From contig JAJGST010000022.1 in NCBI GenBank assembly GCA_020746105.1, positions 1,456,276 through 1,520,275 on the forward strand: a stretch of 64,000 bases of DNA, given 5' to 3'. Made by a program: the position numbers and the translations under genes. This DNA is from Trogon surrucura. Lineage: Eukaryota; Chordata; Aves; Trogoniformes; Trogonidae. Within the stretch, counting starts at the first letter, position 1, and each line of letters starts with the position of its first letter. Of the stretch, positions 4,247-63,439 are shown piece by piece. Under the pieces are notes generated by a model. It worked only from the letters and a program-made list of their open reading frames with translations, did not search any database and had not been told where the DNA came from.

Positions 4247-5135
4247 TTACTTTTCCCCCAAGGTTAAATCACCTTGAGGCACACATCGGGTTTCCCCATC
4301 TTCCCGCATTACCCACCAAGTACACCCAGGTCCTTGAGCAAAGACAATCCCACGAATGGGTTTGCCTTTTCCCATGGGAGGAGCAACCCACACTGCCTTC
4401 CCCAGCCACCTTCCCATGTGCACTACGGGGACCTTATCTCCTCCTACAGTATGTAGAGGTTCTGTTTGGGCAGAACCTGGACGGTTAGCAGATCCTCTAG
4501 AGTTAACCAGCCAAGTGGCTTCTGCTAAATTTGCATCCCAGTGCTTCCATGTCCCATGACCCAATGCCCTCAGCATAGTCTTTAACAGTCCATTGTATCT
4601 TTCAATCTTTCCAGATGCTTCTGGATGATAGGGGATGTGATACACCCACTCAATGCCGTGTTTCTTGGCCCAGGAATTGATGAGATTATTTCGGAAATGA
4701 GTCCCATTGTCTGATTCAATTCTTTCTGGAGTACCACAAAATTTGCCTTTCCAGGTCTAAGATGGTTTTTTGGACAGTGGCATGGTTTACAGGATATGTC
4801 TCAAGCCAACCAGTCATTCCTTCTACAATGGTGAGTATGTAGCGCTTGTTTTGGCGTGTTCGTGGCAGCAGTCCCATTTAGTCAATTTGCCAGGCCTCAC
4901 CATAGTGAAAACCCAGCCACCGCCCTCTGCTCCAGGGAGACTTTTCTCTTGTGGCTCGCTTGATTGAAGCACATATCTCACATTCATGAGTGACCTGTTC
5001 AATGGCCTCCATGGTCAGGTCCACCCCTCGATCACGAGCCCATCTGTATGTAGCGTCTCTCCCTAGATGTCCTGATGTTTCATGGGCCCATCGAGCTACA
5101 AACAGCTCACCCTTACGTTCCCAGTCCAGGTCCAA
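4247..5135 (-). pseudogene. ERVL1 integrase
   Basis: The integrase inserts retroviral DNA into host DNA. The N-terminal zinc-binding module is visible at about 5135-4960: an H-x3-H pair in WAHETSGHLG and a C-x2-C pair in CEICASIK. The core starts at GEAWQID, whose D is the likely first catalytic acid, near 4880. A broken stretch follows (about 4880-4650). The last part (4645-4247) has YHPEASGKIERYN, with the expected catalytic glutamate in IERYN, and a C-terminal end rich in W and G. A frame change or stop separates the two pieces, so no active enzyme is encoded. Nothing env-like follows before the purine tract. Confidence 0.85.
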
Positions 5136-5329
5136 CTGAGCTATTTTGATTTTTGCAGCCTTGTCTACTTGGTCATTATTTCAATGTTCTTCGGTGACGC
5201 GGCTTTTGGGCACATGAGCATCTACATGATGCACCTTCAGAGTCATGTTTTCTATTCGAGTAGCAATATCTTGCCACAATGCAGCCGCCCAGATGGGTTT
5301 ACCCCTGCGCTACCAGTTGGTCTTCTTCC

Positions 5330-5597
5330 ACTGCTGTAACCACCCCCACAGGGCATTAGCCACCATCCAGGAATCAATATAGAGTACTGGTCACTTTTCT
5401 CATTCAGCAATCATCAGGGCTAGTTGGATGGCTTTCACCTCTGCAAATTGACTTGACTCGCCTTTTCCTTCAGTGACCTCCACAACTTGTCGTGTGGGAC
5501 TCCACACAGCAGTTTTCCACCTCCGATGGTTCCCTATCACACGGCAGGATCCATCAGTAAACAAAGCATAGCATCGTTCATTCTCTGGTAGTTCATT
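5330..5597 (-). pseudogene. ERVL1 RNase H domain
   Basis: The frame of the RT ORF continues past a TAG stop (5598-5600) into an RNase H domain. All three expected acidic blocks are readable: LFTDGS, SQFAEVKAIQLAL and VLYIDSW. Two further in-frame stops lie between the second and third blocks. RNase H removes the RNA strand during reverse transcription. The stops make this copy defective. Confidence 0.8.
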
Positions 5598-7154
5598 CTA
5601 TGGTGGTGCCTCTTGGGCACGAACCACCTTCACAGGCACTGCACCAAAATCTCTGCCGTCTGGCCAGTCCATGATCTCTTCCAGGATTCCTGGGTGATTG
5701 GATTTTCCCAGTCGAGCTCGTTGTGTGATCAATGCTACCCACTTACTCCATGTAGCACTAGTTGCATGATGGGTAGAGGGGATATTCCCCCTGAACATCC
5801 AGTGCAACACAGGCAGCCGGGGTGCCAAGAGGAGGGATGCCTCTGTACCAACCACTTCTGAAGCAGCTCGAACTCCCTCGTATGCTGCCAGAATCTCCTT
5901 CTCGGTTGGGGTATAGTTGGCTTCTGAACCTCTGTATCCCCTGCTCCAAAATCCTAAAGGTCGACCTCGGGTTTCTCCTGATGTCCTTTGCCAGAGACTC
6001 CAAGTGAGACCATACTCCCCAGCTGCACTGTAAAGTATATTTTGCACTGATGGTCCTGTCCGGATAGGCCCAAGTGCCACTGCACGAGTTGTTTTCTGTT
6101 TCATCTGCTTGAAGGCTTGTTGTTGTTCAGGGCCCCACTCAAAATCATTCTTCTTTTGAGTCACTCGGAAAAGAGGTCTCACAAGCTGACTGTAACCTGG
6201 AATGTGCATCCTCCAAAACCCCACAAGGCCTAAGAAAGCTTGTGTTTCTTTCTTGCTAGCTGATGGGGACATAGTCGCAATTTTATCAACTACATCCATA
6301 GGCATGTGACGGCGTCCATCCTGCCATTTTATTCCTAAAAACTCAATCTCTTGTGCAGGTCCCTTGACCTTGCTTTTCTTTATAGCGAAGTCAGCCTTCA
6401 GAAGAATTTCAATTATTCTTTTTCTCTTTTCAAACACCTCTTCCGCCGTACTGCCCCACACAATGATGTCATTAATGTATTGTAGATGTTCAGGAGCATC
6501 ACCTTTTTCCAGTGCAGTTTGGATCAGTCCATGACAGATGGTGGAGCTATGCTTCCACCCCTGGGGTAGTCGATTCCACGTGTATTGAACACCCCTCCAG
6601 GTGAAAGCAAACTGTGGCCTGCACTCTACTGCCAAAAGAATGGAGAAAACCGCATCGGCAATGTCAATTGTAGCATACCACCTGACTGTCTTTGACTCCA
6701 GTTCATACTGGAGCTCCAACATATCTGGTACAGCAGCATTCAATGGTGGTGTCACTTCATTCAGGTCACCATAGTCCATGGTTAGCCTCCACCCTCCATC
6801 AGACATTTGCACCGGCCATATGGGACTATTAAAAGGTGAGTGTGTCTTGCTGATCACTCCCTGGGTTTCCAGCTGATGAATCAGCTCATGGATGGGAGCT
6901 AGGGAGTCTCGATTTGTGCGATACTGCTGCTGGGGTACTGTCCTGGTAGCAACTGGCACCTGCTGTTCTTCAACTTGCATCAGTCCTACAATGAAGGGAT
7001 CTTCTGAGAGGCCAGGCAGGGTAGACAGTTGTTTGATCTTCTCTGTAGTCACGGTAGCCACACCAAAAGCCCATCGGTAGCCCTTTGGGTCCTTGAAATA
7101 CCCTCTCCTGAGGAAGTCTATGCCAAGAATACAAGGGGCCTCTGGGCCAGTCAC
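5598..7154 (-). pseudogene. ERVL1 pol: protease C-terminus and reverse transcriptase
   Basis: A 518-codon open frame. Residues 1 to about 35 are the end of the aspartic protease, with the ILGIDFL block. After a linker comes the RT: LETQGVISKTHSPFNSPIWP, LTMDYGDLNEV, WYATIDIADAVFSI, FAFTWRGVQYTWNRLPQGW, then the active-site box, then thumb and connection with FLGLVGFWRMHIPGYS. In the active-site box the expected Y-x-D-D reads YIND: the first aspartate codon (6471-6473) is AAT, so catalysis should be lost even though the frame is open. The homologous fragment near 46.8 kb keeps YIDD. The N-terminal half of the protease is cut off by the CR1 at 7170-8321. Confidence 0.9.
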
Positions 7155-7169
7155 AACAGGGTGCTTTTC

Positions 7170-8321
7170 ATAGAATCATAGAATCATAGAATGTTAGGGA
7201 TTGGAAGGGACCTCGAAAGATCATCAAGTCCAATCCCCCTGCCAGAGCAGGAATGCCTAGACTATGCCACACAGGAACGTGTCCAGGCAGGTCTTGAATG
7301 TCTCCAGAGAAGGAGACTCCACAGCCTCTCTGGGCAGCCTGTTCCAGGGCTCCGTCACCCTCACTGAGAAGAAGTTTCTTCTCGAGTTTAAGCGGAACCT
7401 CTTATGTTCCAGTTTCAGCCCATTACCCCTTGTCCTATCAGTGGTTGTCACCGAGAAGAGCCTGGCTCCATCCTCGTGACACTCACCCTTGATATATTTG
7501 TAAACATTAATGAGGTCACCCCTCAGCCTCCTCTTCTCCAAACTAAAGAGCCCCAGCTCCTTCAGCCTTTTCTCATAAGGGAGATGCTCCACTCCCTTAA
7601 TCATCCTAGTTGCCCTGTGCTGGACTCTCTCCAGCAGTTCCCTGTCTTTCTTGAGCTGAGGGGCCCAGAACTGGACACAGTATTCCAGATGGGGTCTCAC
7701 CAGGGCAGAGTAGAGGGGAAGGAGAACCTCTCTCGACCTACTAACCACCCCCCTTCTAATACACCCCAGGATGCCATTGGCCTTCCTGGTCACAAGGGCA
7801 CACTGCTGGCTCATGGTCATCCTGCTGTCCACCAAGACTCCCAGGTCCCTTTCCCCTACACTACTCTCTAATAAGTCATTCCCCAACTTATACTGGAACC
7901 TGGGGTTGTTCCTACCCAGATGCAAGACCCTACATTTACCCTTGTTATATTTCATTAAATTTTTCCCCGCCCAACGCTCCAGCCTGTCCAGGTCTCGCTG
8001 GATGGCAGCACAGCCTTCTGGTGTGTCAGCCACTCCTCCCAGCTTGGTGTCATCAGCAAATTTGCTGATAGTACTCTCTAGTCCCTCATCCAAGTCATCG
8101 ATGAATATATTGAATAATACTGGTCCCAGTACCGACCCTTGAGGGACTCCACTGGATACAGGCCTCCAACCAGACTCTGCCCCATTGACCAAAACTCTTT
8201 GGCTTCTTCCCCTCAGCCAGTTCACAGTCCACCTCACTACCCGAGAGTCTAGACCACACTTCTGCAATTTAGCAGCAAGGATGCTGTGGGAGACTGTGTC
8301 AAATGCTTTACTGAAGTCAAG
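7170..8321 (-). mobile_element. CR1 LINE nested in ERVL1 protease
   Basis: A 5'-truncated CR1 of the young subfamily, with three ATTCTATG-type tail units at its 3' end (7170-7190). TTTTC occurs on both sides (7165-7169 and 8322-8326), a likely five-base target duplication. It carries the second half of ORF2 without a stop, from the [10 protein letters not shown] block through [15 protein letters not shown] and FADDTKLGG to the C-terminus at 7257. The EN domain and the first RT blocks are missing, so it cannot move itself. It separates the ERVL1 protease active site from its C-terminal part. Confidence 0.93.
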
Positions 8322-8326
8322 TTTTC

Positions 8327-8740
8327 CCACTTGTCCCCTGTTAAACTCACATCAGCCTCCAGCACAGATAATTCTTGGCATCCTCCTGTTACTCCTGAAA
8401 TCCAAACAGGTTTTGAGCCTCTATGTCTTGATGGTACTAATGTACACTGCGCACCGGTGTCCACCAACGCTTTATACTTCTGTGGGTCCGATGTGCCAGG
8501 CCATCGAATCCACACAGTCCAGTATACTTGGTCATCCCTGTCCTTCTCCTGGCCGAAAGCAGGGACCCTCTATTCCTGATCCTCATTAGAACATTCACTG
8601 GGTAATCTTTGCCGTGACAGACCAGAAGTCCCCTCATCAGGATCAAGGGACATGACTTCAATTCTTCTTTGTCTGGGAGATCACTGATTATCTTCCTGAG
8701 TCCCCACAGCAACTACACTGACTGCCTTCTTGTATGTCAC
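8327..8740 (-). pseudogene. ERVL1 protease, N-terminal part
   Basis: The aspartic protease cleaves the Gag-Pol precursor. The active-site loop is intact: YKALVDTGAQCTLVPS at about 8470-8430. It is preceded by VWIRWPGTSD and followed by ISGVTGG. The coding run ends at the CR1 insertion and its continuation is the start of the ORF at 7154. A stop lies upstream near 8580. Similar but more decayed copies are at 338-690 and 50.7-51.1 kb. Confidence 0.8.
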
Positions 8741-10025
8741 CTTCTTAAGTGCTGTCTTTCAGTTCATGCACACTGGCTTCCAGCTTAGAAGTAGATTCAC
8801 CATCCCACTTCCTCATGTCCTCCCCTTGATCATGCAGGAAAAAACAGAGTACTCCACATGACATATGCCTGGGGCTTCCTTTTCCTCTGACTGATACAGG
8901 AAAAAACTGGTTTCTTGGAGTACTCCTGGCAGTTGATGCCTTGGCCCGCAGGGATGAGGAGATGCGGAGATTGTCTTCAAAGTTTTGTAGTCAAGAAGAC
9001 ACTTTTTCCACAGTTGCTATATCCTTATCTGTGCAATATATCATTGCCAAGTTGTTGGAATATGACTCTGGAGCGCCCTGAATCACCTTTCTCCACATGG
9101 CCCGTGTGCACAAGACATCCTCTGGATCTTTAGGGGCTTCTTCACCATCTAGATCACTGTAGATGACTTCCAACACTCCTAGTTCTCTTAGGTACTGGAT
9201 GCCTTCATCTGCAGTAGTCCATTTTCCTTGGAAATTTGAAAGATCTTCCTTGAATGGATATCTTGCCCTTACACTTGAGAGGAGCCGTTTCCAAAGATTG
9301 CAAATATCTGCTTCCTTTCCAATTCCTTTTTCAATTCCCCGATCCCTAGCAAGGGATCCCAGTTGCTGGGCTTCTCCACCATCTAGTTGCTGACTGTCAG
9401 CCCCGCTATGCCAGCATCGGAGCAGCCAGGCAGAAATCCGCTCACCAGGCTGGCGGCTGTAATCTTTCCTCATATCTCAGAGTTCTGATGAGGTCAGGGA
9501 CCGGGTAGTTTCTGCTTCTTGTTTGATTTCTTTCACTCTTCCCGATTCCCCAGTCAGAGGTTTAATTTCTTGATCAGGCTGCTCCTCTTCTTCCTCCCTT
9601 ACTAATCGGCCATATGGAGCTGTTGACTTTCTTGTCCACTTTTTTGTCTTCACTACTGGGTCAATTACTGTAGTCGTTGTTTGAGTTCCTGTCTCAACCA
9701 TGGTGTCTTCAGCTGAAGTTTGGGTGCCTGCCTCAACCACTGCCCTTTAAGAATACTGAACTGTGGCTCGATAGGCACAGGCTAAGCCCCAGTACAACGC
9801 TAGGAGTTGCTGGTTTTCATTGGGGTAGGTGAGGCACCCTTCTATCAGGTGGCGTGTCAATTTAGTAGGGTCTCTTGCCTGTTCGGGGGTGATATCCCAG
9901 GCTATGGGAGGTGATAAGCGTCCTAGGAATCTGCCCAAGTCCTTCCACGTACCCTGCCACCCAGGGACCGGCCGTTTCAAGGCACACTTCAGTACGTCCT
10001 CACACAAAGATTGTCTCCTCTTATA
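8741..10025 (-). pseudogene. ERVL1 gag
   Basis: Gag would build the particle. From about 10025 leftward one reading frame runs with in-frame stops at 9747-9749 (TAA), 9477-9479 (TGA) and near 8990. The first part has PVPGWQGTWKDLGRFL and YWGLACAYRA. The middle is acidic and carries two GTQT motifs (near 9730 and 9690). The third has a PGERISAWLLRCW block and a capsid-like helical stretch to 8991. The end near 8850 is poor in cysteine and shows no clean zinc knuckle. The copy at 53.6-54.4 kb preserves the same order, which supports calling this gag although it resembles well-known gags weakly. Confidence 0.7.
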
Positions 10026-10338
10026 TCAGGATGAAAACAGATTCCACAAAGCCCATAGTATACTAATAACATTAACTAGTAATGTCATAGAGCTTATGCA
10101 AGGATGAACAAGGACCCTGGGAGCCTCCATAATAAAGCCATTTACATCAATCTCATGTAGGCAGAGGGGAATATATTCCTTTACTCTATCCAAAAGATAG
10201 CTCCAGCCCTGCAGCAGGGCTGTAACCACTAGAACAAAACACATATTCATTGTTTGTCTTAACATGTTCTTAAGCAAAGCTAAACCAAATGATAAGCAAG
10301 TGCTACAAGAAAACTCCGTGTCCCGCACAGGAGCTTGC
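10026..10338 (-). pseudogene. ERVL1 hydrophobic leader ORF upstream of gag (interrupted)
   Basis: Between the PBS and gag the minus strand carries an open frame of roughly 110 codons when the nested provirus is disregarded. It starts just inside the PBS (about 12987-12929) and resumes at 10338, ending with TGA at 10026. The visible part has two hydrophobic segments, one around MCFVLVVTALLQGW and one around MTLLVNVISILWALW. I do not recognise the product. It could be a genuine pre-gag reading frame or chance openness. The second ERVL here does not extend far enough to compare. Confidence 0.4.
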
Positions 10339-10739
10339 TGTAGAGGAATTTCTTGTGGAGCAGAGGTGCGGTATAACTTTAAAAGTGTGGACAACCCAGC
10401 GTAGGCCTAAACAAAGGCTCTGTCCTTGAAGCTGCCTTGGAACACAGGGAGGAGGAGGTTTTATCTGTTTTGTGAGAGCTTTGCGAGATGCTTGGCGGGA
10501 GGTGCTGGCCCCGGGGGGAGAAGAGGGGGCGAGAGCCGCCTGCATAGTGGAATGGCACTACCCAATAAAATGCTGGCGCGTGTAAACCTGTAACTGACCA
10601 ACTCGGTTAAGGGGCAGGCGCGGGGACACTGCTGAACTGTATATATTGAGCTGTCCGGAGCAATAAAGGGAGGATGATCTGTAGCCATATTGGTGTGATG
10701 ATCGTTAACTTGGCCGGCTCTCCGAAGGGACCCTCTTCA
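10339..10739 (+). repeat. LTR-A provirus 5' LTR
   Basis: 401 bp, TGTAGAGG to CCTCTTCA. A TGTATATATT promoter element lies at about 10638-10647 and AATAAA at 10662-10667, only about 20 bases downstream. The transcript start and poly(A) signal are thus close together and R should be short. Confidence 0.93.
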
Positions 10740-10741
10740 TC

Positions 10742-10759
10742 TGGCGCCTGAACAAGGGA
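10742..10759 (+). promoter_or_regulatory. LTR-A provirus primer binding site (Lys-type)
   Basis: Two bases after the LTR the sequence is TGGCGCCTGAACAAGGGA. The TGGCGCC start and GAAC core resemble sites complementary to a lysine tRNA 3' end, so tRNA-Lys priming is likely. Confidence 0.8.
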
Positions 10760-10921
10760 CCCTCTATGGACACTTAAATGCGGATTGCTTAAATGCGGGA
10801 AGACTCCGAAGCATCGGACGTGAGCCGATTTGGGAGCCGGAGAGCTGGAGGCAGGAGAGTTCCGAGTGTGACCAAAAGGGCACCGGAGACCAGAGCTTGA
10901 GCAACCGATCAAGCCCCTGCC

Positions 10922-10930
10922 AAGGTAAGA
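10922..10930 (+). promoter_or_regulatory. Candidate splice donor before gag
   Basis: CAAGGTAAGA just upstream of the gag ATG (10936) is a close match to the 5' splice-site consensus and lies where a retroviral leader donor for env mRNA is expected. Confidence 0.5.
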
Positions 10931-10935
10931 CCGCG

Positions 10936-11300
10936 ATGGAAACGGACGCGGCAACTCGCCTCCTTAGTATACTCTCTAAGAGAGGAGGAAAAGTAAAGGA
11001 GCGAGACGTATTAGCCCCATGGGCTCGGAAACGGGAGAAAATGAACGACCCGCCATTAATCTTTAGTTCCACGGAATGGCGTGAAGTAGGAGACTTTTTG
11101 TGGAACTGTACTCTAGAGAGAGGAACAGAAGGAAAGGAAGCGAAAGAACTAGGAACGGTTTGGAAAACTGTAATATGCACTCTAGAAATCATGCAAGCAG
11201 AAAAGAAAGTTGCTGCGGCAGCGATCGAAGCGTTGGGGGGAGGGCAGGAAAGGAAAAAGGCAAAGGAAGAAACTCCCTGCTCGTCCCGACTGGGTGGAAG
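10936..11300 (+). pseudogene. LTR-A provirus gag, matrix region
   Basis: An open frame from ATG 10936 encodes about 120 residues beginning METDAATRLLSILSKRGGK, rich in basic residues with a tryptophan-containing middle, in the position of a retroviral matrix domain. It runs into an A tract (11301-11326) and an unrelated LTR-B piece, so the natural continuation is lost. After the second A tract (11606-11629) a further gag-like frame (about 11640-11790, EDQDEPLKEILNKLAEL) ends at a TAA. Confidence 0.7.
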
Positions 11301-11330
11301 AAAAAAAAAAAAAAAAAAAAAAAAAAGGAG

Positions 11331-11605
11331 AAACTGCACTGCATTGCCGAATTAAGACTTTTGTCCTTGAGCTGAGCTCTTTTCTAAACAAGTGCATAAC
11401 TCTTGCTTGTTAATTATGAAAAGAGACCCTGACCAGCCAGGTACAGCTCATGTTGAGAGCTTGTCCGTGAGAATGAAGATAAGACGCTTCTTGTACACCA
11501 GATGTGCATGGGAGTGAACGGGAGAGTACGATCAAAACAGACCTGGGAAATTCTGCTCTCCCTGTGTGATAACAGCGTGATCGAAGTAATACTTGAGCTA
11601 ATAAG
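11331..11605 (+). repeat. LTR-B fragment between two poly(A) tracts
   Basis: This segment matches the inner part of LTR B at 63.02-63.30 kb (plus) and 23.7-24.05 kb (minus), but lacks both LTR ends. It is bounded by 26 A (11301-11326) and 24 A (11606-11629). The flanking gag-like sequence is interrupted exactly here, so the segment was added to the provirus. Confidence 0.8.
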
Positions 11606-11799
11606 AAAAAAAAAAAAAAAAAAAAAAAAGAGAGAGGGGGAAGAAGGAAGATCAGGATGAACCCCTGAAAGAGATCCTGAACAAACTCGCTGAATTATCA
11701 ACTGGACAGCGAGAAATAGAAGAAACCCTTAAACCAGTTCAGCTCCCCCACTACCATCAGCTCCCTCACTCAAGCCTGATTTTCAAGCTTGAACCATAA

Positions 11800-11950
11800 A
11801 GGATCCTTTGCAACAGCGATGGAGCAGTGTCATCAGAGACGTTATAATAGAGGGAGATTGGGAAGCAGCCAGTTCGATTGAGTGTCCTGTTATTATTAAT
11901 AACGGACAAGGGACTTGAGAACCCCATGATCCCGCATGATGTGGCTGTGC
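11800..11950 (+). pseudogene. LTR-A provirus gag, capsid-start remnant
   Basis: One frame reads a short block resembling the start of a retroviral capsid: a PVIINNGQ motif followed after one stop by EPHD. It is only about 50 codons long and is joined directly to env-like sequence, so the rest of gag and all of pol are deleted. Confidence 0.5.
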
Positions 11951-12059
11951 AGCATCCTGTCACTTCAACAGCGCAGCAGCAACACGACCGTGCACTGGGC
12001 CTGCCTGTTGAATCCCTTTGTTTCGCCCAGTGACGTGATGGGACCCTGAAGTACCGATT

Positions 12060-12230
12060 ACCAACGATGATATGGACTGGACTGGCAGAAGATGCTTACG
12101 GCTGATGGCAGAGCAATTGTGGGAAAATGTGACTGTTCTCAATGTTACCTGTTGTATTAATATGTATCCTCTTTGTGTGACTAACAATGAAGCTTATATT
12201 GGTTGTGTAATCAAAGCCACATAGTAGGTG
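12060..12230 (+). pseudogene. LTR-A provirus env surface remnant
   Basis: A frame ending at the TAG of ACATAG (about 12222) contains two adjacent N-glycosylation sites in WENVTVLNVTC and several cysteines (CCINMYPLCV). This pattern is typical of a retroviral surface glycoprotein. Only a short internal piece survives. Confidence 0.5.
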
Positions 12231-12237
12231 TTAAGGT

Positions 12238-12350
12238 TTATGTACTAACCAGCAGAGTGATCTTTCTTTAGCTAAAAGCAAGGCAGGGAAACCAGCTGCC
12301 TTTTGCTTTGTTAGAAGTGTGTGATTAAGGATCAAAGTATGATTTAGGGC
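12238..12350 (+). repeat. Family-X segment inside the provirus
   Basis: The run around CTGCCTTTTGCTTTGTTAG and the following GTGTGATTAAGGA match the reverse complement of family X at 45.85-45.95 kb. Either X derives from the 3' interior of related proviruses or the provirus picked this piece up. Confidence 0.6.
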
Positions 12351-12375
12351 GATGGGTGTGAGAACTTTGACAGGA

Positions 12376-12530
12376 TGAATTAAGAGTTTAGTTAAGGCAT
12401 TTTTGGTTATTGCAGTTTTAATTGTTATAGGCTTACTTATGTTTAGTTGTTTGATAAGTATAATCAAGAAAATTATAAGCAAGCTAGCGGATGAAGCCTG
12501 GGTTGTCCAAAAAGAAAAAGGGGGATATGT
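12376..12530 (+). pseudogene. LTR-A provirus env transmembrane anchor and tail
   Basis: After a TGA at about 12375 the frame reads a basic residue, about 20 strongly hydrophobic residues (VIAVLIVIGLLMFSCLI), then a lysine-rich tail that ends across the 3' LTR start. A membrane anchor with a short tail directly before the purine tract is where the end of retroviral env lies. The ectodomain is missing. Confidence 0.65.
12511..12524 (+). promoter_or_regulatory. LTR-A provirus polypurine tract
   Basis: AAAGAAAAAGGGGG lies three bases before the 3' LTR, a textbook plus-strand primer tract. Confidence 0.85.
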
Positions 12531-12928
12531 AGAGGAATTTCTTGTGGAGCAGAGGTGCGGTATAACTTTAAAAGTGTGGACAACCCAGCGTAGGCCTAAA
12601 CAAAGGCTCTGTCCTTGAAGCTGCCTTGGAACACAGGGAGGAGGAGGTTTTATCTGTTTTGTGAGAGCTTTGCGAGATGCTTGGCGGGAGGTGCTGGCCC
12701 CGGGGGGAGAAGAGGGGGCGAGAGCCGCCTGCATAGTGGAATGGCACTACCCAATAAAATGCTGGCGCGTGTAAACCTGTAACTGACCAACTCGGTTAAG
12801 GGGCAGGCGCGGGGACACTGCTGAACTGTATATATTGAGCTGTCCGGAGCAATAAAGGGAGGATGATCTGTAGCCATATTGGTGTGATGATCGTTAACTT
12901 GGCCGGCTCTCCGAAGGGACCCTCTTCA
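12528..12928 (+). repeat. LTR-A provirus 3' LTR
   Basis: 401 bp, reading identically to the 5' LTR when compared base by base by eye. Confidence 0.95.
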
Positions 12929-12987
12929 GCTTGCTGCTTAATAACTACTCTAACTATAGCAAGCTTGAGCAAAACTTCTGTTATCCT

Positions 12988-23184: not shown

Positions 23185-26100
23185 TGCTTCAAATGAGGGG
23201 TGAACCAGTCTAGGGCCATTCCTGAAAGCTGGAAGATAATTGAAAGGGCTTTAAACTAGGTTCAAAGGGGGAAGGAAATAAAACCAGGCTCACAACAGAT
23301 GAGCCAAGGGGAAGCATCCCAGTGTTGGGGTTGAAACTGATAACCCAGCTCAAATGCATCTACACCAATGCATGCAATAAGGGCAATAAGCAGAAGGAGC
23401 AGGAAGCCACTGTGCAAGATATCTATGACATAGTCACCACTGCGCTCAGTGGGCAAATAGACCAAACCAACCAGAACGGTAACAGATGGTCCTCAACTAA
23501 GTCTCTGAAGTGTCTGTGTATCAATGCAAAGAAGCAAGGGGAATAAGCGGGATCAACTAGAAATTTGGGCACAGTCGCAGAGCTACAAACTCATTGTAAT
23601 TACAGAGACATGGTGGGATAGCTCACATGACTGGAATGTGGTAATGGATGACTATGTACTTTTTAGTGTGGTGAGCTGAAAGGCATGGACTCAGCTCTTG
23701 AGAGAAGCTAAGACAAAGTTTATCAGCAAGAAGCAGTATTTATGGATTACAAACAGGAGTTCAGACTATGCAGCCAGGATTGTTATTCGCTCATGTACTA
23801 CTTCAGTCATTCTCTCATCACACAGGGAGAACAGATGTTCCCAGGTCTGTTTTGATCATACTCTCCCATTTACTCCCATGCACATCTTGTGTACAAGAAG
23901 GGTCTTATCTGAGCGTTCTCACAAGCAAACTCCCAACATGAGCTGTACTCAGCTGGTCAGGGTCTCTTTTCATTATTAGCAAGAGTTATGTACTTGTTTA
24001 GAAAAGAGCTCAAGGATGAAAGTCTTAATTCTGCAACGCAGTGCTGCCGGCACAGCTAGATGTGAAATGTAGGGTATCCGCATTTCAGGAAGGATAGACT
24101 GACAAGGCGAGGTGATGGAGTTGCTCTTTATGTGGGTAAGCAACTAGAATGCATTGAGCTAAACCCAGGGAAGATAATGAAAGTGTTAAAAGCTTAAGGG
24201 TAAGAATTAAGGGACATACAAACACTGGAGATACTGTTGTGGGTGTATACTACAGACCACCAAACCAAGAAGTTGTTGACAAGGCCTTCTACAGGCAACT
24301 GAAAGTAGCCTCAAGATTACATGCCCTGATGCTCATGGGTGACTTCAGTGACCCTGATATTAGTTGGAAAGATGACACAGCCAAGCATAAGCACTAAAAA
24401 GGTTCCTGCAGAGCATTAATGACAACTTTCTGCTGGAAGTGGTTGAAGAACCAACGAGGAGAGGGGCAGTGCTGGACCTTGTATTAACAAAGAAGTTAAG
24501 GTTGGGGGCAGTCTTGGCTATAGTGACCACGACATGTTAGAGTTTAATATTGTTAGGGAAAGAAGAAGGGTAATAAGTAAAATTTCTATCCTGACTTTAA
24601 GAGGGTTGACTTTGTCCTCTTCAAAGATCTAGAAGGTAGGGGGGCACAAGAGAGCTGGTCAATATTCAAAGTATACTTCCACCAAGTGCAAGATAAATGT
24701 ATTCCCTTGAAAAAAAACATCAAGTAGAGGAGGCAGAAGACCTGCATGGATAAGCAAGGAGCTCCTGGAAAAACTCAAATGGAAGAGGAAAATTTACAAT
24801 ATGTGGAAAAAGGGTCTGGTTAATTGGGAGGATTATAGAAATGTGGCCAGAGTATATAGAGACTCAACAAGAAAGGCCAAGGCTCTCTTGGAATTTAGTC
24901 TGGCTAGGGAAGTGAAAGAAAACAAGAAAAATTTCTTCAAGTACATCAATGAGGAAAGGAAGAGTAAGGAAAAAGTGGGTCCCTGCTAAATGAGGTGGGA
25001 GATATGGTAACAGAGGAAGCAGAGATGGCAGAACTACTGAATGCCTTCTTTGCCTCAGTCTTTACTCCTAAGGCCAGCCCTCAGGAATTCCAGTCCCTAG
25101 AAGTAAGGGAGCAAAACCGGAGCGAGGATGATTCTCCACTGGTCAGTGAGGACTGGGTTAGAGAACTATTACAAAAGCTGAAAATACACAAACCCATGGG
25201 CCCCTAGAGGGTGCATCCATGTGTGCTGAGAGAGTTGGCTGATGTTGTGGCTGAGCCACTCTCCATCATCTCTGAAAAATCATGGGAAACGGGAGAGGTG
25301 CCTGAGGACTGGAAGAAAGCCAATGTCACTTCAGTCTTCAGAAAGGGCAAGAAGGAGGACCCTGGCAACTACCAGGCCAGTCAGCTTCACCTCCATCCCT
25401 GGGAAGGTGATGGAGCAGCTCATTTTGAAGGCCATCTGTAATCAATTGGAAGAAAAGAAGATTATGAGGAGTAGCCAGCATGGATTTACCAAGGGGAAAT
25501 CTTGCCTGACTGATGTGATATCCTTCTATGAAGGTGTGACCAAATGGGTAGATGAAGGGAGAGCAGTGGATGTCATATACCCTGACTTCTGTAAGGCTTT
25601 TGACACTGTCCCCCATAACATCCTCGTAGGAAAACTCAAGAAATGTGGGATAGATGATTGGACTGTGAGGTGGATGGTTAAATGGCTCAGCAACAGAGTT
25701 CAGAGGGTTGTAATCAGCAGCACAGAGTCAAGTCTACACCACGTGTGGTCAGTGGTGTTTCCCAGGGATAAGTGTTGGGTCCAGTTTTGTTCAATATTTT
25801 CATCAACGACCTGGATGAGGGGATAGAGTGCACCCTCAGCAAGTTCGCTGGGAGGGGTGGCTGACACACAGGAAGCCTGTGCTGCTATCCAACGAGATCT
25901 GGACAGGCTGGAGAGCTGGGCAAAGGGGAACCTCATGAAGTTCAATAAGGACAAGTGTAGAGTCCTGCATCTGGGGAGGAATAACACCAGGCACCAGCAC
26001 AGATTAGGGGATGTCCTGCTGGAAAACAGCCCCATGGAGAAAGACCTTGGAGTTCTAGTGGACAGGAAGTTGTCCATGGGTCAGCAATATGCCCTTGTGG

Positions 26101-28573: not shown

Positions 28574-29395
28574 GGAGAGAGTCCAAGAGAGAGCTATGAG
28601 GATGATTAAGGGACGTGAACATCTCTCCTATGAGGAAAGAGTGGGAGAAATGGGGCTGTTGAGTCTTGAGAAGAGAAGGCTCAGAGAGGATCTTATTAAT
28701 GTGTATAAATATCTGAGGGGTGAGTGTTAAGAGGAAGGAGCCAGTCTATTTTTGGTGGTGCCTGGTAATAGGATGTAGAGGAATTTCTTGTGGAGCAGAG
28801 GTGCGGTATAACTTTAAAAGTGTGGACAACCCAGCGTAGGCCTAAACAGAGGCTCTGTCCTTGAAGCTGCCTTGGAACACAGGGAGGAGGAGGTTTTATC
28901 TGTTTTGTGAGAGCTTTGCGAGATGCTTGGCGGGAGGTGCTGGCCCCGGGGGGAGAAGAGGGGGTGATAGCCGCCTGCATAGTGGAATGGCACTGCCCAA
29001 TAAAACGCTGGCGCGTGTAAACCTGTAACCGACCAACTCTGTGAAGGGGCAGGCGCGGGGACACTGCTGAACTGTATATATTGAGCTGTCCGGAGCAATA
29101 AAGGGAGGACGATCTGTAGCCATATTGGTGTGATGATCGTTAACTTGGCCGGCTCGCCGAAGGGACCCTCTTCAATAGGACAAGGAATAATGGGTATAAC
29201 CTAGAACATAGGAAGTTCCACCTCAACATGAGGAGAAATTTATTTACCATGAGGATGATGGAGCACTGGAAAAGGCTGCCCAGAGAGATTTTGGAGTCTC
29301 CTTTTCTGTAGACTTTCAAAATCTACCTGGATGCTTTCCTGTGTGGCCTGCCCTAGGTGATCCTGCTCTGGCAGGGAGGTTGGACCAGATGATTA
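28574..29395 (+). mobile_element. CR1 3' fragment split by LTR A
   Basis: RT C-terminal blocks from the ERVQERAMRMIKG region, then LTR A (28774-29174), then the terminal codons and 3' UTR up to the GGTTGGACCAGATGA end. Heavily mutated. Confidence 0.85.
28774..29174 (+). mobile_element. Solo LTR, family A (401 bp)
   Basis: TGTAGAGG to CCTCTTCA, flanked by ATAGGA at 28768-28773 and 29175-29180, a perfect six-base duplication. It differs from the LTRs of the 10.3-kb provirus at roughly ten positions by eye. Formed by recombination between the two LTRs of a lost provirus. Confidence 0.94.
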
Positions 29396-36131: not shown

Positions 36132-36905
36132 TGTTTTAGTTATTCCTGAACATTGTCAAGGCCTTTTCTCCTTCTTGTACTGCCCTACCAGTGAGTAGGC
36201 TGGGGGTGTTCAAGAAGTTGGGAGGAGACACAGATGTGACAGCAGAACCCAAAAGACCAAAGGCATATTACTAACTGTATGACATCGTCCTTAGAAATAA
36301 AATCTGGGGGAATGAAGAGGGTCCCTTTGGAGAGCCGGCCAAGATAACGACACTCTCACCGATACGGCTACATGTCGTCCTCACTTTATTGCTCCGGACA
36401 GCTCAATATATGCAGTTAAGCAATGTGTACGTGCCTGCCCCTTAACAGAGTTGGTCAGTCACAGGTTTACACGCGCCAGTCTTTTATTGGATAGTGCCAT
36501 TCACCTATGCAGGCGGCTCTCGCTCCCCCCTCTCTCTCCCCAGCAAGGCTCTCACAAACAGCTGCACCTCCTCCTCTCTGTGCTCCAAGGCAGCTCCAAG
36601 GACAGAGCCTTTGTTTTGGCCTAAGCTGGGTTGTCCAAACCTTTAAAGGGATACCGGGTTCCTGCTCCACAAGAAATTCCTCTACAGGGGAAGAAGAAGG
36701 AAGTGGGGGACTTTCAGAATTATGGCATTTACCTTCCCAAGTAACTGTGATGCATGATGGAACCCTGTTTTCCTGGAGATAAACACCTGCCTGCCAGTGG
36801 GAAGTAGTGACCAAATACCTGATTTTGCTTTACTTGCATGTGCAGCTTTTGCTTTACTTATTAAACTGTCTTTATCTCAACCCACAAGTTTTCTCACTGT
36901 CCTTA
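36132..36905 (+). mobile_element. LTR H copy, interrupted by LTR A
   Basis: Sequence around GTGAGTAGGCTGGGGGTG before the LTR-A insert, and after it CCTGTTTTCCTGGAGATAA and TTATTAAACTGTCTTTATCTCAACCCA. This resembles a common avian ERVL-type LTR, with a poly(A) signal variant ATTAAA and a degraded TATA-like stretch (AGAAATAAAATC) just before the insert. No target duplication identified. Family recognition is from memory. Confidence 0.55.
36314..36686 (-). mobile_element. Solo LTR, family A, older copy (373 bp)
   Basis: TGAAGAGGGTCCC to CCTCTACA on the plus strand, flanked by GGGGAA at 36308-36313 and 36687-36692, a perfect six-base duplication. It is 28 bp shorter than the young LTRs and visibly diverged (for example in the promoter-proximal GC stretch), so the family has been active over a long period. 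Confidence 0.93.
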
Positions 36906-62996: not shown

Positions 62997-63439
62997 CGTG
63001 GATATCCTACATTTTAGTTAGCTGTGCTGGCAGCACTGCGTTGCAGAGTTAAGACTTTTGTCCCTGAGCTCTTTTCTAAACAAGTACATAACTCTTGCTT
63101 GCTAATAATCAAAAGAGACCCTGACCAGCCAAGTACAGCTCATGTTGGGAGTTTGTCCATGAGAATGAACAGATAAGACACTTCTTGTACACCCGATGTG
63201 CATGGGAGTGAATGGGAGAGTGTGATCAAAACAGACCTGGGAAAGTCTGTTTTCTCTGTGTGATAAGAGAGTGATTGAGGGAGTACATGAGCTAATAACA
63301 ACCCTGGCGGTGTAGTCTGATCTCTTGTTTGTAACCCAAAAATAGTGCTTCTTGAAAGTAAGTATAAATATGTGTGCCTGCTTGCAGTAAAGCGAATTCC
63401 GTTTTCCACCATCTCGGAGTTCGTGCGTGCTTCTCAACA
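62997..63439 (+). mobile_element. Solo LTR, family B (443 bp), inside LTR D
   Basis: Begins CGTGGATATCC (TG mutated to CG) and ends TTCTCAACA. C runs on both sides are compatible with a CCCCCC target duplication. The other D copies are continuous across this point. Confidence 0.82.

What the first reader, a model, noticed from the sequence alone, without database searches (positions are those of the whole stretch)
10339..12928. Very young, pol-less, chimeric provirus with identical LTRs
Both 401-bp LTRs read the same and the six-base duplication is perfect, so insertion is recent, yet the interior has no protease, RT or integrase. It keeps only what is needed in cis (LTRs, lysine-type PBS, splice-donor-like site, 5' gag, purine tract) plus an env anchor. 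It looks like a parasitic retrovirus-derived family mobilised in trans, with two older relatives at 28.77 and 36.31 kb.
Basis: partly seen in the sequence, partly recalled or inferred. Interest (0 to 1): 0.85.

Follow-up and report, generated by a model that had tools for sequence, protein, structure and literature searches.

The report
Pol-less avian provirus family, trans-mobilised
A small retrovirus remnant in a bird genome, too short to encode the enzymes that copy or insert it, is one of several hundred similar copies that kept spreading until recently, most likely by borrowing the proteins of related, longer elements in the same genome.

Summary
The two 401-bp LTRs (10339-10739, 12528-12928) are identical, flanked by GCTTGC, and the 1.8-kb interior has no protease, RT or integrase. 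It is not a one-off deletion: an exact 25-base leader string of this form occurs 576 times in the window's genome (reversed control 0). Of 60 fetched copies, 57 have the same chimeric interior and 60 join gag to env without pol. Of 59 two-LTR copies (window included), 23 have no LTR substitution and 55 an exact 6-bp duplication. Longer relatives exist: 139 gag-bearing matches; 19 of 20 sampled share LTR and leader. 16 of 20 sampled are pol-deleted too; one, 7.1 kb, shows RT, RNase H and integrase, with LTRs 94% identical to these. Some short copies carry the longer elements' LTR, as expected from co-packaging. Trans-mobilisation is strongly supported, not shown. It works like mouse ETn/MusD and cattle D-type ERVK: a new member of a known kind.

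The parts
10333..10338 (.). left copy of the 6-bp target-site duplication, GCTTGC
10339..10739 (+). 5' LTR, 401 bp, TG...CA
   Evidence: identical to 12528-12928
10742..10759 (+). primer binding site, tRNA-Lys type (TGGCGCCTGAACAAGGGA)
   Evidence: of 41 copies 32 have this form, 8 TGGCGCCCGAACAGGGAC, 1 a form in between; the Lys assignment is recalled
10740..10935 (+). leader, with splice-donor-like AAG|GTAAG at about 10922-10929
   Evidence: positions 34-196 at 82-93% in 19 of 20 gag-bearing relatives
10936..11300 (+). 5' part of gag (matrix region), ATG at 10936; frame stays open to 11355 through the A-run
   Evidence: relatives in bird proteins; 86-89% in the 19 gag-bearing relatives where the whole piece is present
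11301..11326 (+). A-run of 26
11336..11607 (+). fragment of an unrelated repeat, probably an LTR of another family, sitting where longer relatives have more gag
   Evidence: 87% to 63000-63354 and 84% to 24044-23785, neither beside this family's LTR; its LTR nature was not tested
11606..11629 (+). A-run of 24
11640..11930 (+). gag continued, to the start of capsid, frames broken; about 90 bp missing at about 11739 compared with longer relatives
   Evidence: 87-95% colinear pieces in 8 of 8 sampled gag-bearing relatives (L085-L092)
11931..12241 (+). piece joined directly to gag (pol absent); holds an env-like open stretch at 12039-12221; donor not found
   Evidence: no match in the sampled pieces of longer relatives, except L113, which has it too
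12242..12527 (+). end of env (membrane anchor and tail), lacking about 255 bp at 12339; purine tract at 12509-12527
   Evidence: 88-98% to the 3' end of longer relatives
12528..12928 (+). 3' LTR, 401 bp
12929..12934 (.). right copy of the 6-bp target-site duplication
28774..29174 (+). solo LTR of the same young family, duplication ATAGGA
   Evidence: 97.5%; read; 0.5% from nearest short-copy LTR
36313..36686 (-). solo LTR of a more distant branch, duplication GGGGAA
   Evidence: 81%; read; at least 13.6% from 39 short-copy LTRs

Best explanation
The element is one copy of a non-autonomous family of a class II (betaretrovirus-like) bird ERV. An ancestral copy lost everything between the start of capsid and env, and in another event a stretch of gag was replaced by a fragment of an unrelated repeat between A-rich tracts, probably by template switching of reverse transcriptase (inferred). 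What remained is what is needed in cis: LTRs, primer site, leader with the start of gag, purine tract. Its RNA is packaged, copied and integrated by Gag and Pol proteins made by longer relatives in the same genome that share its LTR and leader. Shown: shared structure, copy number, hallmarks of retroviral integration, longer relatives, LTR exchange between forms. Inferred: which copies supply the proteins, and that transfer is within the germ cell.
For: 576 exact matches of a short-form leader string, reversed control 0. 60 of 60 fetched copies have the gag-env junction without pol, 57 of 60 the full standard order. Exact 6-bp duplications in 55 of 59 two-LTR copies and zero LTR substitutions in 23 of 59, window included: integration by a retroviral integrase that the copies do not encode. 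In the first 21 copies the LTR pairs differ by 20 substitutions in total, while LTRs of different copies differ by 2.2% on average: each pair was made in one round of reverse transcription. The gag start shows no protein-level selection: synonymous fraction 0.294 against 0.26-0.30 expected. 19 of 20 gag-bearing relatives share LTR, leader and gag; across sampled copies they carry capsid, zinc knuckle, dUTPase, protease, RT, RNase H and integrase. A 7121-bp copy with RT and integrase has LTRs differing at 2 of 403 positions, a GGGCAG duplication, and is the sampled long copy nearest to the short LTRs. L106 and L023 have short-type interiors but LTRs 1.1% and 2.9% from long relatives, against 9.3% and 7.7% from the nearest short LTR.
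Against: No expression, packaging or new insertion was observed. Only 1 of 20 sampled gag-bearing loci showed integrase; its LTR is still 4.5% from the nearest short LTR, so the actual helper may be unsampled, lost or exogenous. The first two sets of 20 copies were chosen by similarity; the third was chosen by position among exact leader matches and covers one contig only. One copy of 20 in that set (L113) is a different arrangement and two more (L095, L106) deviate. The LTR tree is unstable: the group of short plus pol-bearing LTRs had support 99, but with 20 more LTRs, recombinants among them, nine gag-bearing LTRs fell into the same group. The trees are midpoint-rooted.
Confidence: 0.88

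Rival explanations
1. A single internal deletion of one provirus, with no family behind it.
For: Seen alone, the window copy would look like this.
Against: 57 of 60 fetched copies share the full chimera, at different places and mostly with their own exact duplications; 576 exact leader matches.
Confidence: 0.01
2. The same short family, carried between germ cells or animals in particles of an infectious retrovirus (now absent or not in this assembly) rather than by endogenous helpers inside the cell.
For: The nearest sampled pol-bearing LTR is 4.5% from the short LTRs. The env-like piece at 12039-12221 matches no sampled piece of the gag-bearing relatives, so its donor is missing.
Against: A young 7.1-kb endogenous relative with RT and integrase exists and has only 174 bp between its integrase frame and the env tail, which fits intracellular spread; the LTR of the recombinant L106 matches an endogenous gag-bearing copy to 1.1%.
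Confidence: 0.2
3. The copies spread by duplication of host DNA segments, or were kept alike by gene conversion.
For: Copies are alike: pieces differ on average by 1.8-3.3%. Identical LTR pairs could in part come from conversion.
Against: 55 of 59 two-LTR copies have an exact 6-bp duplication, at different places. 5' and 3' LTRs of a copy match each other far better than they match other copies.
Confidence: 0.02

Closest known systems
Bovine ERVK[2-1-LTR] D-type elements and their C-type helpers (PMC10924933; passages and section 20 seen)
   Same: Family of defective copies outnumbering coding ones, sharing LTRs and parts of gag and env with them, containing an old piece of another retroelement; recombination between the two forms.
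   Different: D-type is about 6.8 kb; here 2.6 kb. There the central segment was swapped; here gag joins env directly and the foreign piece replaces part of gag. Mobilisation was measured in cattle, not here.
Mouse ETn and its helper MusD (PMC6466679, PMC10089650, PMC10924933; passages seen)
   Same: Non-autonomous class II elements mobilised by a coding relative sharing sequence with them.
   Different: ETn keeps parts of gag and pol (as stated in PMC10924933), this keeps parts of gag and env. For ETn/MusD trans-mobilisation is cited there as established.
Koala recKoRV (PMC5696478; passages seen)
   Same: LTR, leader and 5' gag at one end, end of env at the other, with another retroelement's piece inside; not autonomous.
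   Different: KoRV is a gammaretrovirus; 15 insertions in one koala assembly, main form 6.9 kb, foreign segment 4.9 kb.
Chicken EAV-HP and ART-CH (PMC4607243; passages seen)
   Same: Bird proviruses; [quoted passage not shown]

Membership tests
Trans-mobilised non-autonomous ERV (ETn/MusD type) | LTRs, primer site and purine tract kept | tested here: met
   both LTRs found in 58 of 60 fetched copies (L029 and L113 show one in the stretch; both LTRs of L040 are shortened); primer site found in 41 of 41 copies looked at
Trans-mobilised non-autonomous ERV (ETn/MusD type) | No own reverse transcriptase or integrase | tested here: met
   gag-env junction without pol in 60 of 60 copies
Trans-mobilised non-autonomous ERV (ETn/MusD type) | Many copies of one defective structure, each retrovirally integrated | tested here: met
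   57 of 60 standard order; 55 of 59 exact 6-bp duplications; 576 leader matches
Trans-mobilised non-autonomous ERV (ETn/MusD type) | Coding relative with shared LTR/leader in the same genome | tested here: met
   integrase seen in 1 of 20 sampled loci; frames not judged for function
Trans-mobilised non-autonomous ERV (ETn/MusD type) | Helper proteins shown to mobilise it | not testable with these tools
   needs an assay; referred
Class II (betaretrovirus-like, ERVK) ERV | Lys-type primer site, 6-bp duplication, dUTPase beside protease in relatives | tested here: met
   (L070: dUTPase then RVP); that these mark class II is recalled
Class II (betaretrovirus-like, ERVK) ERV | RT places inside class II in a tree | not tested
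   no reference RT set was used
Class II (betaretrovirus-like, ERVK) ERV | Gag matrix fold like known retroviral matrix | tested here: inconclusive
Central segment swapped with an old retroelement (recKoRV / bovine D pattern) | Foreign retroelement piece in place of the pol region | tested here: not met
   a foreign repeat piece is present but inside gag; the pol gap itself is a gag-to-env-like join; where the piece 11931-12241 comes from is unknown
EAV-HP / ART-CH | Sequence identity to the chicken elements | not tested
   no reference sequence held

The most novel reading that the evidence does not exclude
A three-tier parasite chain inside one ERV family: rare gag-pro-pol copies with little or no env, young gag-bearing but pol-deleted copies of about 5 kb that may supply Gag and themselves need Pol, and hundreds of 2.6-kb copies that use both. 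Half of the gag-bearing matches sit on four repeat-rich contigs (perhaps the W chromosome; untested) while short copies occur on many large contigs, so the parasite's protein source may be largely female-limited.
Probability: 0.3. Interest if true: 0.72.

Novelty: new member of a known kind. Interest (0 to 1): 0.55.

Why it matters
It adds a bird to the mouse, cattle and koala cases in which a defective chimera depends on the retrovirus it came from, suggesting that this happens repeatedly. Because short, intermediate and pol-bearing forms, and recombinants between them, coexist in one assembly, it allows direct tests of how such parasites arise (deletion and template switching), which cis sequences they must keep, and whether they help to extinguish their helper.

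Tried and rejected
One-off deletion and spread by DNA duplication were rejected on shared junctions and on the duplications. Selection to keep the open gag start was considered because 34 of 41 copies have no stop in it; the synonymous fraction equals the neutral expectation, so it was rejected as a protein-level constraint. Weak Pfam hits such as OAD_gamma, DUF4543, SieB and MelC1 and the Foldseek matches (none with E <= 0.001) are taken as chance. Retro_M was matched by one of 12 members, E 0.16. No relative was found in viral contigs. PDB sequence searches with a capsid-start piece and with the matrix profile gave nothing useful. Rfam (gathering threshold) and tRNA scans of the window were empty.

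The copy count is a lower bound: the window copy itself differs from the 25-base string at one base, so it is not among the 576. A count of the long form's leader string did not complete, so no ratio of long to short copies can be given.
Full report
WHAT IS IN THE WINDOW. The finding is real. The LTRs at 10339-10739 and 12528-12928 are identical over 401 bases, begin TG, end CA, and are flanked by GCTTGC. The interior of 1788 bases has, in order: a Lys-type primer site, a leader with AAG|GTAAG, an ATG at 10936 starting a gag piece, a run of 26 A, an unrelated piece, a run of 24 A, further gag in broken frames, env-like pieces with stops, an open membrane-anchor end, and a purine tract. There is no room for protease, RT or integrase. 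Pfam finds no retroviral domain in the open pieces tried, but the gag start has bird relatives, among them five Zosterops borbonicus proteins at 43-50% identity.

Window 11336-11607 matches two other places in the window, 63000-63354 (87%) and 24044-23785 (84%), neither beside this family's LTR. Those two places match each other over 357 columns (86%), more than the provirus carries, so the provirus holds a fragment of a repeat. It looks like part of an unrelated LTR (a TATA-like string lies downstream in the 63-kb copy, read by eye); its ends and nature were not tested. In longer relatives gag runs through the corresponding place, so this is a replacement, not a simple insertion. The solo LTR at 28774-29174 belongs to the short family (0.5% from its nearest member); that at 36686-36313 is at least 13.6% from 39 short LTRs.

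A FAMILY, NOT A DELETION. The window is C61:1456276-1520275 of a 1.166-Gb assembly in 164 contigs. CR1-like repeats (label recalled; open frames) and the gag relatives indicate a bird. The LTR search had 2694 first-look candidates and the leader search 983, of which 40 each were scored. A 25-base leader string typical of the short form matches exactly 576 times (283 + 293), with no match for the reversed control. I fetched three sets of 20. Set A, LTR hits: 20 of 20 have the standard interior (L014 has an insert of about 217 bp in the SU piece). Set B, leader hits: 20 of 20 have leader, gag, foreign piece, gag and the SU piece, 19 of 20 also the full 3' end; L029 breaks off in the env tail. 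Set C, about every fifth of the first 100 matches listed, all on contig C1, two replaced by neighbours because already fetched: 17 of 20 standard. The exceptions are L095 (foreign piece and part of gag missing), L106 (part of gag missing, the longer relatives' env tail and LTR present) and L113 (below). Gag joins the SU piece directly, within a few bases, in 60 of 60. L029 is counted among the 57 standard copies.

INTEGRATION AND AGE. Exact 6-bp duplications flank 20 of 21 copies (set A and the window), 17 of 19 in set B and 18 of 19 in set C: 55 of 59. Of the four misses, three look like offsets in my LTR ends (L007, L039, L111) and one has a mismatch (L023). LTR pairs without substitution: 10 of 21, 5 of 19 and 8 of 19; four of these 23 have a length difference (L001, L017, L018, L099). 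The largest differences are 16 of 401 (L031) and 14 of 402 (L095). In set A plus the window the pairs differ by 20 substitutions in all, while LTRs of different copies differ by 2.2% on average. With an assumed 2e-9 substitutions per site per year, the range runs from under about 2 My to about 10 My: the short form has been moving for a long time and until recently. The gag start is not kept for its protein: 25 synonymous and 60 other changes, a fraction of 0.294 against 0.26-0.30 expected, and 7 of 41 copies with a stop.

THE LONGER RELATIVES. A gag linker that the short form lacks (P0014) has 139 matches in this genome (150 of 192 candidates scored), 26 of them in open frames of 770-791 residues. 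For the top 20, a piece of 1.2 kb around the gag start was read: 19 of 20 have an LTR 75-92% identical to the short form's, leader positions 34-196 at 82-93%, and gag at 86-89%; L054 shows only part of gag. Their primer site agrees with the short form's over its first part and differs after it. Then 20 loci (19 of these and C10:15530225, next in rank) were read at about 2.7-4.0 kb past the gag match. 16 of 20 already reach the env tail there; of three of these tested by Pfam two show an RNase H piece (L063, L067) and one nothing (L064). They lack integrase and part of pol. In 14 of these 16 part of the 3' LTR could be compared: 13 have 0-5 substitutions in 207-392 bases, one 15 in 230; two of the 14 (L076, L077) gave the same results throughout and may be one duplicated locus. 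The other four loci are longer. L070 shows a zinc knuckle, dUTPase and protease, but the piece taken further down that locus is another short copy (L082). The C7 locus has RT, thumb and RNase H pieces in broken frames and then the env tail, without integrase, and its LTRs differ at 36 of 365. The C60:6088648 locus ends in an env tail and LTR, 7 of 402; two of its open pieces matched no family. The C10 locus shows RT, thumb and RNase H (L080) and all three integrase domains (L081), with 174 bp between the integrase frame and the env tail. That copy is 7121 bp, its LTRs differ at 2 of 403 positions, it has a GGGCAG duplication, and its 5' LTR is 93.8% identical to the window's. Capsid domains were seen in a gag piece of another locus (L088). 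Frames were not judged for function.

LINKS BETWEEN FORMS. In a midpoint-rooted tree of 63 LTRs, 39 short LTRs, the solo at 28.77 kb, the pol-bearing pair and one gag-bearing LTR form a group with support 99. With 20 more LTRs the group takes in nine gag-bearing LTRs (one node of 68 LTRs with support 89), so the short form sits among a subset of the long ones but its exact sister is open. L106 and L023 have short-type interiors and LTRs 1.1% and 2.9% from long relatives, against 9.3% and 7.7% from the nearest short LTR; L106 pairs with L059 at support 100. L102 is intermediate (3.7% and 6.1%) and L107 does not decide (6.4% and 5.6%). Such exchange is expected when both RNAs are in one particle. 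L113 has the gag-env junction but not the foreign piece, and keeps the stretch of gag that short copies lack; it suggests the order deletion first, replacement later. One copy is thin evidence.

MECHANISM. Best reading: transcription from the LTR, packaging through leader and gag start, priming by a Lys tRNA, reverse transcription and integration with 6-bp duplication, with all proteins from longer relatives. Structure, number, integration marks and the presence of relatives are shown; which relative supplies what is inferred. The origin of the A-run-flanked replacement by template switches is inferred. The env-like stretch at 12039-12221 has no match in the sampled pieces of gag-bearing relatives, so part of the history is missing.

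WHERE THE FORMS SIT. 74 of the 139 gag-bearing matches lie on C60-C66; C60-C63 alone, 18.8 Mb or 1.6% of the assembly, hold 70 (sizes). This resembles the ERV-rich W chromosome described for birds (PMC8310711, passages seen), but W linkage was not tested. The lists for the short form are sorted and cut, so no comparison of densities is made.

WHAT IS KNOWN. Cattle D-type ERVK, mouse ETn and koala recKoRV share the pattern of a defective form keeping ends and parts of gag and env or pol, carrying an old retroelement piece, and moved by a related coding form (PMC10924933 section 20; PMC5696478 passages; PMC6466679 and PMC10089650 passages). The present family fits, with two differences: it is much shorter, and the foreign piece lies within gag, not in place of pol. 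For chicken, EAV-HP is said to be believed to spread with a helper (PMC4607243 passages); sequence relation was not tested. A survey of chicken LTR elements (PMC5006616, passages seen) mentions possible mobilisation of non-autonomous elements in general.

Noticed in passing
window 4247-9476, minus strand: Open pieces that look like gag, RT and integrase of another, ERVL-like provirus, with a CR1-like piece between them (labels from memory; seen, no family search run).
   Followed up: no
window 1691-57361, many places: Several copies of a CR1-like LINE (label recalled), some 97% alike over 1.2-1.5 kb on opposite strands: recent LINE activity.
   Followed up: no
L082 (C60:7012400-7013900): A short copy lies about 6 kb downstream of a gag-bearing copy, possibly nested in it.
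   Followed up: no
L040, both LTRs: Both LTRs share a deletion of about 212 bp that takes out most of U3 with the TATA-like string, yet the copy has an exact duplication: the loss arose before or during its last copying.
   Followed up: partly
primer sites of 41 short copies: 32 carry TGGCGCCTGAACAAGGGA and 8 TGGCGCCCGAACAGGGAC; since the site is recopied from the primer, two different Lys-type tRNAs may be in use (inference).
   Followed up: partly
L113 (C1:174203500-174206901): Form with the gag-env junction but without the foreign repeat piece.
   Followed up: partly
window 63000-63354 and 23727-24079: Copies of a second repeat, probably LTRs, the source type of the foreign piece.
   Followed up: partly
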